From Planctomycetota bacterium (lineage in GTDB: Bacteria > Planctomycetota > Planctomycetia > Gemmatales > Gemmataceae): a stretch of DNA of 45,723 bases. The translations under genes and the position numbers were made by a program. Below, in pieces: positions 43,487 to 45,723 of the stretch; within the stretch, counting starts at the first letter, position 1; each line of letters begins with the position of its first letter. Location of the stretch: NCBI GenBank assembly GCA_016191165.1, contig JACPPF010000024.1, forward strand, positions 1 through 45,723, written 5' to 3'. The notes beneath the pieces are model-generated. The model searched no databases. It was not told the DNA's origin and saw only the letters and a list, made by a program, of their open reading frames with translations.

Positions 43487-43516
43487 TTGACAAGTCTAGC
43501 GCGCCATCGGTAAACT
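43487..43516 (+). promoter_or_regulatory. Possible promoter of the annexin-repeat gene
   Basis: A perfect TTGACA (43487-43492) and TAAACT (43511-43516, 4 of 6 matches) lie 18 bases apart, about 50 bases upstream of the ATG at 43565. Confidence 0.4.
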
Positions 43517-43564: not shown

Positions 43565-45723
43565 ATGTTCAGCCCACGCTCCTGGATAGGTGAATTCATG
43601 TACAAGGGGGGGGGGCGGCGCGCTAATACCAGCCCCCCGCGCAAGCGGGGGGATCGTTACGCCGCACTAACCATCGAACGACTGGAGGACCGCCTCGCGC
43701 CAGCTACGCTCAACTTCCTCGGCGTCAGCGACAACTGGAACAATCCCGCCAACTGGTCCGGCGGTGCCGTTCCCTCTTTGCTTGACGATGTCGTCTTCAA
43801 CAACGCCGCGGACCTGAACGTGACCAATCTCAACGTCAACGATACGGGCGTTAACGTTCACGGCATCACCCTGAACGCCGGGTTCACGCTTACCATCGCC
43901 GGTGACTTGACCGTCGATACTTTTCAATTCAACGGCGGCACGATCAACGGCGCCGGCTCCCTTTACATCGCCGAGACCTTGACCTGGTCCGGCGGCATCA
44001 TGAGCGGCGCCGGCATCACCAGCACTCTCTCGGGCGCCACCGCGAATGTCCTGCTGACTGCCACCTCCGGTTCGGGCGGCCTGCCCGGCATGCCGCCAGC
44101 TGGCATCTTCACCCTCACCGATGCGCGAACTTTCGTCAACCTCGGCACAACCACCTGGAACGGCCCGTTCTACGTCTCCTCCGGCGCGGCCTTCGACAAC
44201 CGGGGAACCATCACCTACGTCGGCACCGACTTCACCTGGGACTCCACCGTCCGCTTACAAAACACCGGGACCGTGGCGTTCGATCACGCCGACGTCCATT
44301 TCTATGGCCCACTCACGCTCAACAACACCATCAATTTCCTGAACGGCCAGCAAGACAAGAAGGTCATCATCAACGGCAACGTCACGATCCAGAACGTGAC
44401 GCTGCAAGAGGACTTGCACGGCACCGGCACGCTGACGGTTCCCGGCACATTCGCCTGGGACAGCGGCCGACTCGTCGGCACGGGCTCAATCGTCGTCCCC
44501 GCAGGCGGCACGTTCGACATGCCGACCATCGCCGGCGCCCGCAAACTCGATGGCCGAACGTTGAGCGTGCAAGGCCAGCGCACCTGGGTAGTCGAAGGCG
44601 TGACCGGCACGCTCCCGCCCGGCGCGCGCCTCTCGTCCGCCGCAGGCAACCCGCTAATGCCGGCTTATGCGTCGATCACCGCCTGGTCCGACGCAATGTG
44701 GTCGTCACCGGATTTGCCGATGAATAATAAGGTGAGGCCACCGGCTGCGCCTCCGCCCGCGCCATTCAATCCTGTGAGCGCTGCCGGGATCGTTTATCGC
44801 GCCATGTTTGGCGGTGCCGCCGGCATCGGCACGGACGAAGACCAGATGTTCCGGGCCATGGAGGGTATTCGCTCGCAGGCTGACAGCATTGCCTTTGCCA
44901 GCGCGTACGTCCAAATGTACCCCGGCCGCAACCTTTACAATGATCTGAATTCGGAACTTTCTGGCGACGACTGGCTGCGCGCACAATCACTTTACAACTA
45001 CGACTGGGATCGCTACGTCGCGGTCACCATGCATCAGGCGATGTTTGCGTGGAGTTTGACTACCGATGTCGATCTCATGGTCCGGCTGGCCCTGGATTCG
45101 CGCTCGATCGGCCCGGTGATCGTTTATAAGTATTCGCTGGAATACCGCGATCCAAATAGCTTTGCGCCAGGCGACATCAACGTCGACATGGCAAGCAAAC
45201 TTGCCCAAGTGGACCGCATTCGTGTGGTAGCGGCGCTGGACGAAAATACCGCCCGCGCCGATGCTGCCGCGTTGCACCATCGCTTCCATCCCACCGGAAT
45301 CGAGGTCAACGACCCAGAAGCGGTGTTTTCGTTGCTTCGAAGCCGCACGCCTACTCAGATTGCGCAGATTCGCCAGGAATACAACACCATAAACCTCACG
45401 CCAACGTTCGACGCCGATTTGCGCGCCTACCTGGAGCGAAACCAACTGGCTACCACAACGAGCAACTGGCCCTACGCTCAAGCCTTGATGAACGGCGACC
45501 GGATTGCGGCGGCCGTCGCGCGCCTGCACATGGCTGTTGATGGCGTCGGCACTGATGAAGAGATGTTCTGGACAGCCTTGACCGGCCTCTACGCCGACGA
45601 GCGCGCCATGGTCGCGCAAGTCTACCGAACCACTTACAACAAGACCCTTCTGAAGGAAATCGACGACGAATTTGAAGACAGTTCCGTCTTCGGCAAAGAG
45701 CACGAACGCAGTGTTAAGCTTTA
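43565..45723 (+). CDS. Surface protein with four annexin repeats (3' end outside window)
   Basis: An open frame of 719 codons runs from ATG 43565 to the window edge without a stop. The N-terminus holds a 10-G run and a palindrome, then the planctomycete-type motif IERLEDRLAPATL (L40-A47). Residues about 50-390 are a repetitive beta-helix-like region (NWNNPANWSGGAVP, LNAGFTLTIAGDLTV, GTGTLTVPGTFAWDSGRLVG). Four annexin-type repeats follow: 1 about 409-475 with GIGTDE (420-425), 2 about 488-560 with TDVD (D501), 3 about 570-635 (EAVFSLLRSRTPTQIAQIRQEY), 4 about 645-719 with GVGTDE (660-665). In repeats 1 and 4 the Glu of NSEL (E464) and DDEF (E702) aligns with the calcium-capping Glu of annexin A5 E72. 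It is likely exported and calcium-dependent. No TAT or Sec signal is obvious before LEDRLAPA. Confidence 0.9.
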   Translation, partial: MFSPRSWIGEFMYKGGGRRANTSPPRKRGDRYAALTIERLEDRLAPATLNFLGVSDNWNNPANWSGGAVPSLLDDVVFNNAADLNVTNLNVNDTGVNVHGITLNAGFTLTIAGDLTVDTFQFNGGTINGAGSLYIAETLTWSGGIMSGAGITSTLSGATANVLLTATSGSGGLPGMPPAGIFTLTDARTFVNLGTTTWNGPFYVSSGAAFDNRGTITYVGTDFTWDSTVRLQNTGTVAFDHADVHFYGPLTLNNTINFLNGQQDKKVIINGNVTIQNVTLQEDLHGTGTLTVPGTFAWDSGRLVGTGSIVVPAGGTFDMPTIAGARKLDGRTLSVQGQRTWVVEGVTGTLPPGARLSSAAGNPLMPAYASITAWSDAMWSSPDLPMNNKVRPPAAPPPAPFNPVSAAGIVYRAMFGGAAGIGTDEDQMFRAMEGIRSQADSIAFASAYVQMYPGRNLYNDLNSELSGDDWLRAQSLYNYDWDRYVAVTMHQAMFAWSLTTDVDLMVRLALDSRSIGPVIVYKYSLEYRDPNSFAPGDINVDMASKLAQVDRIRVVAALDENTARADAAALHHRFHPTGIEVNDPEAVFSLLRSRTPTQIAQIRQEYNTINLTPTFDADLRAYLERNQLATTTSNWPYAQALMNGDRIAAAVARLHMAVDGVGTDEEMFWTALTGLYADERAMVAQVYRTTYNKTLLKEIDDEFEDSSVFGKEHERSVKL
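43606..43615 (+). repeat. 10-G homopolymer in the annexin gene 5' end
   Basis: Ten consecutive G bases follow TACAA at codons 14-17. A gain or loss of one G would change the frame before the LEDRLAPA motif, so phase-variable expression or a sequencing error are both possible. Confidence 0.85.
43620..43652 (+). repeat. In-frame GCAA hairpin repeat in the annexin gene
   Basis: TACCAGCC at the left leads into a perfect 8-bp stem CCCCCCGC (43633-43640), loop GCAA, stem GCGGGGGG (43645-43652). It is the same family as at 4508 and 19863, here translated as SPPRKRGD between the poly-G tract and the LEDRLAPA motif. Confidence 0.8.

What the first reader, a model, noticed from the sequence alone, without database searches (positions are those of the whole stretch)
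44780..45723. Four annexin repeats with preserved calcium sites in a bacterial surface protein
Seen: after a beta-helix-like half, four units share the annexin spacing (acidic loop, helix pairs, Y..Y and DL-type segments). Repeat 1 has GIGTDE at 420-425 and E464; repeat 4 has GVGTDE at 660-665 and E702. The Thr-to-Glu distance in repeat 4 is 39 residues, the same as in annexin A5 (T33 to E72); in repeat 1 it is 41, with two inserted residues. Known: annexins use this loop plus capping Glu to bind calcium and acidic phospholipid; bacterial annexin-like proteins exist but are rare. Inference: this is a calcium-switched surface or membrane adhesin made by joining a beta-helix to an annexin core.
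Basis: partly seen in the sequence, partly recalled or inferred. Interest (0 to 1): 0.88.

Follow-up and report, generated by a model that had tools for sequence, protein, structure and literature searches.

The report
Planctomycete annexin-repeat protein, cut off
A planctomycete bacterium carries a gene, cut off by the end of the assembled DNA, that joins an export-type leader and a beta-rich domain to four annexin repeats (a membrane-binding module best known from animals and plants); such genes are rare in this phylum, but bacterial annexins as a kind are already known.

Summary
The 719-codon frame at 43565-45721 runs off the contig and matches Pfam Annexin at E=1.6e-16. Motif positions are exact: GIGTDE 420-425, E464, GVGTDE 660-665, E702, spacings 41 and 39. 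AlphaFold2 gives 20 helices, four repeats of five (pLDDT 85). Repeats 1 and 4 keep the calcium motif; repeats 2 and 3 have lost it, and repeat 2 has no sequence signal of its own. A single repeat superposes on an annexin domain at 1.6 Å (73 residues), but the whole model does not (TM about 0.3), so a closed annexin disc is not shown. The genome is planctomycete. Annexins occur in 1 of 95 genomes of its family and 2 of 392 sampled from its phylum. The core is closest to bacterial tandem annexin arrays, some of them in eCIS- or toxin-linked proteins. This protein instead has a leader shared with other proteins of its genome, which lacks the sheath family searched. A calcium-dependent membrane-binding module is the best inference; 'adhesin' is untested and a lost C-terminal effector domain cannot be excluded. 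New variant of a known kind.

The parts
43487..43516 (+). sigma-70-like promoter match 49 bases before the start codon (TTGACA-18-TAAACT)
   Evidence: 1 found against 0.1 expected in shuffles; consensus match only
43565..43708 (+). N-terminal leader (residues 1-48) with ...RKRGDRYAALTIERLEDRLAPA
   Evidence: near-identical leaders (up to 84% over 31 residues) at the start of other large proteins of the same genome; no significant Pfam hit
43709..44725 (+). beta-rich domain (about residues 49-387), possibly a beta-solenoid/beta-helix
   Evidence: 31 short strands, pLDDT 53, single sequence; mostly beta-helix proteins among the top matches, none with E below 0.1; paralogous first halves in the genome
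44726..44770 (+). Pro-rich linker (about residues 388-402, NNKVRPPAAPPPAPF)
   Evidence: direct reading of the translation
44771..44995 (+). annexin repeat 1 (residues 403-477)
   Evidence: helices 4-16, 26-33, 39-52, 58-65, 68-78 of the model; PF00191 22 bits alone; profile of other bacterial repeats 34 bits
44822..44839 (+). calcium loop of repeat 1, GIGTDE 420-425 (capping Glu E464 at 44954-44956)
45005..45238 (+). repeat 2 (residues 481-558), degenerate: SLTTDVD in place of GxGTDE, no capping Glu
   Evidence: predicted five helices, lowest confidence of the core; no Pfam hit; single-repeat alignment scores mostly near shuffled
45248..45490 (+). annexin repeat 3 (residues 562-642), calcium loop lost (GIEVNDPE)
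   Evidence: 16 bits; 16.5 bits
45500..45718 (+). annexin repeat 4 (residues 646-718); its last helix ends at the contig end
   Evidence: 35.6 bits, E=1e-8; 43 bits
45542..45559 (+). calcium loop of repeat 4, GVGTDE 660-665 (capping Glu E702 at 45668-45670)

Best explanation
A true bacterial annexin-repeat protein of a planctomycete. Shown by computation: an exported-type leader and a beta-rich domain are followed, after a Pro-rich linker, by four annexin repeats, two of which (1 and 4) keep the complete type II calcium motif (GxGTDE plus capping Glu). Inferred: the protein is exported; outside the cell, where calcium is plentiful, repeats 1 and 4 bind calcium and through it anionic phospholipid, so that the annexin part holds the beta-rich domain (and whatever follows the contig end) on a membrane: the cell's own outer membrane, vesicles, or a neighbouring cell. 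Whether this serves adhesion, envelope organisation or delivery of a further domain cannot be told from what is here.
For: Pfam Annexin E=1.6e-16; PDB sequence search finds annexin XII over query residues 19-303 at E=1.9e-9; end-to-end alignment to the first four repeats of bacterial arrays L019 and L022, 28-29% identity, 110 and 93 bits; AlphaFold2 4 x 5 helices at pLDDT 85; Foldseek hits to annexins at E about 1e-8, probability 1.00; repeat 1 on annexin I domain 1 at 1.6 A over 73 residues, Z 11.2; calcium motif intact twice and present in 79 of 105 repeats of other bacteria; leader and first half shared with other proteins of the genome; codon use of both halves inside the range of neighbouring genes.
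Against: No biochemistry. The whole-core model does not superpose on an annexin tetrad (TM 0.28-0.30). Two of four calcium sites are gone. No recognised secretion signal. The C terminus is missing. The annexin half lies at a contig end with lower G+C than the first half (57.5 against 63.4%), so an assembly join is not fully excluded, although the frame stays open through a typical linker.
Confidence: 0.6

Rival explanations
1. The protein is a modular effector like other bacterial annexin-array proteins: the annexin repeats are a membrane-engaging or delivery segment and an effector domain follows beyond the contig end.
For: The nearest relatives are arrays of four to eight repeats in long modular proteins: eCIS_core plus annexin plus a weak metallopeptidase match in L037, eCIS_core in L018, Ntox4 at the C terminus of L036. 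Zhang et al. 2012 describe annexin domains followed by toxin domains (PMC3482391). The array here may continue past the contig end, as L019 and L022 have a fifth repeat.
Against: No eCIS_core in the read part and no Phage_sheath_1 in the genome although three control genomes rang. The N-terminal half is a planctomycete export-type leader and beta domain, not an eCIS module. No piece of such a C terminus was found elsewhere in the genome.
Confidence: 0.25
2. The core is a structural relic: annexin fold kept as a spacer or protein-binding solenoid, with calcium and lipid binding weak or lost.
For: Repeats 2 and 3 have lost both loop and cap; repeat 1 carries insertions; the predicted arrangement differs from the flat annexin disc.
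Against: Repeats 1 and 4 keep the full motif, which drift would be expected to erode first.
Confidence: 0.12
3. The fusion of the beta domain with the annexin core is an assembly join at a contig end.
For: The annexin half occupies the last kilobase of the contig and differs somewhat in G+C; no relative with both halves was found.
Against: One open frame of 719 codons through a Pro-rich linker; G+C and codon use of the annexin half lie within the range of other genes of the window.
Confidence: 0.03

Closest known systems
Bacterial annexins (Kodavali et al. 2014, PMC3894181): 34 proteins in 17 species
   Same: Annexin repeats recognised by PF00191, GxGTD loop as the most conserved feature, multi-repeat forms, extra domains of other kinds, patchy distribution
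   Different: No planctomycete in that list; the domain architectures described there (metalloprotease, lipase, toxin, colicin) do not include a planctomycete export leader plus beta-rich domain
Annexin arrays of polymorphic-toxin / eCIS-linked proteins (Zhang et al. 2012, PMC3482391; Nat Commun 2021, PMC8213781; L018, L036, L037 here)
   Same: Tandem repeats in the same order; closest sequence match by alignment of the whole core; first repeat with an AM.GG..G.GTDE-type motif in several
   Different: No eCIS_core and no effector domain in the part that can be read; no contractile sheath family found in the genome
Eukaryotic annexins (A5, XII)
   Same: Four repeats of five helices; type II calcium motif with 39-residue spacing in repeat 4; sequence match E=1.9e-9 to annexin XII
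   Different: Eukaryotic cores form a compact disc, which the model does not reproduce (TM about 0.3); here the core is fused to an export-type N-terminal half

Membership tests
Annexin superfamily (PF00191) | Profile match above the curated cut-off | tested here: met
   60.5 bits against 25, E=1.6e-16
Annexin superfamily (PF00191) | Repeats of about 70 residues with five helices each | tested here: met
   20 helices in four groups of five, pLDDT 85; predicted, not solved; repeat 2 least certain
Annexin superfamily (PF00191) | Type II calcium site GxGT plus acidic cap 38-40 residues on | tested here: met
   In repeats 1 (spacing 41, with insertions) and 4 (spacing 39); lost in repeats 2 and 3
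Annexin superfamily (PF00191) | Four repeats packed as a compact curved disc | tested here: inconclusive
   Whole model against annexins TM 0.28-0.30, rmsd about 16 A; single repeat 1.6 A; 16-row alignment, no predicted-error map at hand
Annexin superfamily (PF00191) | Calcium-dependent binding of acidic phospholipid | not testable with these tools
   needs purified protein
Annexin-bearing eCIS / polymorphic toxin proteins | eCIS_core or other toxin-delivery domain in the same protein | tested here: not met
   Pfam scan of the 719 residues finds only Annexin above a cut-off
Annexin-bearing eCIS / polymorphic toxin proteins | C-terminal effector domain | not testable with these tools
   contig ends inside the frame; continuation not found in the genome
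Annexin-bearing eCIS / polymorphic toxin proteins | Contractile sheath in the genome | tested here: not met
   PF04984: none in the genome, three controls rang; PF13699 also none, but no control rang. The genome is 95% complete
Planctomycete extracellular proteins (PF07595, Planc_extracel) | Profile match of the N-terminal motif | tested here: inconclusive
   No hit for this leader; two similar leaders of the same genome score 14-15.5 bits, under the cut-off of 25.5

The most novel reading that the evidence does not exclude
A planctomycete surface protein in which an annexin core is arranged as an open superhelix rather than the eukaryotic disc, with calcium sites only in its first and last repeat, acting as a calcium-dependent membrane tether for an exported beta-solenoid: a use of annexins outside toxins and outside eukaryotes.
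Probability: 0.25. Interest if true: 0.65.

Novelty: new variant of a known kind. Interest (0 to 1): 0.42.

Why it matters
Annexins are textbook calcium-switched membrane binders of eukaryotes. Whether the bacterial ones do the same work, and whether they are ancestors or borrowed copies, is open (PMC3894181). A planctomycete protein with a four-repeat core, two intact calcium sites and a non-toxin N-terminal half is a clean subject for asking whether a bacterial annexin binds membranes in a calcium-dependent way, and whether bacterial cores form the disc or an open array.

Tried and rejected
Continuation of the gene: the window is the whole contig; the last 120 bases occur nowhere else in the genome; a bacterial annexin-array protein as query finds no second piece (best other hit E=0.08). 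Single-sequence scans of genome contigs, viral contigs and plasmids found no relative; only the repeat-4 profile did. Alignment A1 held a mistyped annexin XII row and was dropped; A3 replaced it and seeded all later work. Planctomycete G250 hit (L053) is weak (15-21 bits, one part-repeat) and was not counted. eCIS delivery was considered and set back because no sheath family was found. Chance was rejected: one of 389 segments of the window hits. A tree of single repeats was not built: 54-position repeats are too short and too divergent to be trusted.

Full report
What is there. The window is one complete contig (C138, 45,723 bases) of a 7.23 Mb, 95% complete draft genome. Its last frame, 43565-45721 on the + strand, encodes 719 residues and is cut by the contig end. 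Neighbouring genes carry planctomycete families (PSCyt1, PSCyt2/DUF1549, PSD1/DUF1553, DUF1501), two type II/IV secretion ATPases, a lactonase and a methionine-synthase-like protein, so the host is a planctomycete. A sigma-70-like site lies 49 bases before the start codon.

Annexin or chance. Pfam Annexin matches the protein at E=1.6e-16 in three stretches. Repeat 4 alone gives 35.6 bits, repeat 1 22 bits, repeat 3 16 bits and repeat 2 nothing. Solved-structure sequences matched are annexins, best annexin XII at E=1.9e-9 over residues 19-303 of the 320-residue core. A profile trained only on repeats of other proteins gives 97 bits to this frame and no other hit among 389 six-frame segments of the window.

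Fold. AlphaFold2 on a 16-row alignment of bacterial arrays predicts exactly 20 helices, four groups of five, mean pLDDT 85.4, pTM 0.75; confidence drops to about 60 inside repeat 2; the last helix of repeat 4 ends two residues before the contig does. Foldseek finds annexins first (E about 1e-8, probability 1.00) but with TM-scores of only 0.28-0.30 and rmsd about 16 A over the whole core. With VIA-align, repeat 1 fits domain 1 of annexin I at 1.6 A over all 73 residues (Z 11.2), whereas whole cores fit at 7-17 A. So the repeats are annexin-like one by one; how they are packed together is unsettled. It may be a real open array, or an error from a shallow alignment with an uncertain second repeat.

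Calcium sites. Repeats 1 and 4 keep GxGTDE and the capping Glu. Repeat 2 has SLTTDVD and no Glu at the cap; repeat 3 has GIEVNDPE and no cap. In other bacterial repeats the loop is the commonest shared feature: 79 of 105 have GxG[TA]x, 67 the strict GxGTD, 44 loop plus Glu cap.

Relatives. Within the family of the host (95 genomes) and its order (102) no other genome has a PF00191 match; in 392 genomes sampled from the phylum one more has it, a two-repeat protein with a possible peptidoglycan-binding N-terminal part. With the bacterial core profile the answer is the same plus one weak hit. A repeat-4 profile found 22 bacterial loci in Deinococcales, Myxococcales and other deltaproteobacteria, Chloroflexi, Alpha- and Gammaproteobacteria, Actinobacteria and Bacteroidetes, and five viral contigs. 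Most of the bacterial ones are arrays of four to eight repeats inside long modular proteins: with eCIS_core in L018 and L037, with Ntox4 in L036. The window's core aligns end to end with the first four of five repeats in L019 and L022 at 28-29% identity, and repeats 1 and 4 score best against repeats 1 and 4 of L019. Its alignment score to annexin XII is lower (144 against 264 for L019), so it sits with the bacterial annexins.

N-terminal half. The leader (...RKRGDRYAALTIERLEDRLAPA) is nearly identical to leaders of other large frames of the genome whose next domains differ, and part of the following beta-rich stretch also has paralogues there. It resembles the planctomycete extracellular motif PF07595, but this copy does not match that profile. 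The beta-rich domain folds only weakly without an alignment (pLDDT 53); its structural neighbours are mostly beta-helices, none significant. Same-genus genomes have no full-length homologue.

Function. Shown: an annexin-repeat core with two complete calcium motifs fused to an export-type half. From established knowledge of annexins: this motif binds calcium and bridges to acidic phospholipid. Inferred: the protein leaves the cytoplasm and uses repeats 1 and 4 to hold on to a membrane when calcium is present. The main rival is that the annexin array carries an effector domain lost beyond the contig end, as in several relatives; the absence of an eCIS module in the protein and of the sheath family in the genome speaks against the eCIS form of that idea but not against every form.

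What is known. Annexins in bacteria were surveyed in 2014 (17 species, no planctomycete, none in viruses), and annexin domains in toxin proteins in 2012 and 2021; a Myxococcus annexin-repeat protein has been linked to antagonism between strains. Searches of the held papers for annexins in planctomycetes found no report of one, within an open-licence library only. The finding is therefore a new variant of a known kind, of moderate interest.

Noticed in passing
L040 (3158-4321), L041 (3410-4585), L042 (3428-4528), L043 (2929-4044), L044 (1474-2595): Single annexin repeats with an intact GxGTDE loop in proteins of IMG/VR viral contigs; Pfam 23-24 bits, just under the cut-off, but 50-55 bits with the bacterial profile. 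The 2014 survey found none in viruses. No match among named phage records.
   Followed up: partly
L018, L036, L037: Annexin arrays fused to eCIS_core (L018, L037) or to the toxin domain Ntox4 (L036): bacterial annexin repeats recur in toxin-delivery proteins across phyla.
   Followed up: partly
43565-43708 and L006, L007, L010, L011, L013, L015: A leader of about 40 residues is up to 84% identical among proteins of this genome whose following domains differ, as if leader cassettes were copied between genes.
   Followed up: no
L003 (1-903), genome G203: The only other clear planctomycete-phylum match: a two-repeat annexin protein with a possible peptidoglycan-binding N-terminal part, on a 3 kb contig of a 79% complete draft; could be contamination.
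   Followed up: partly
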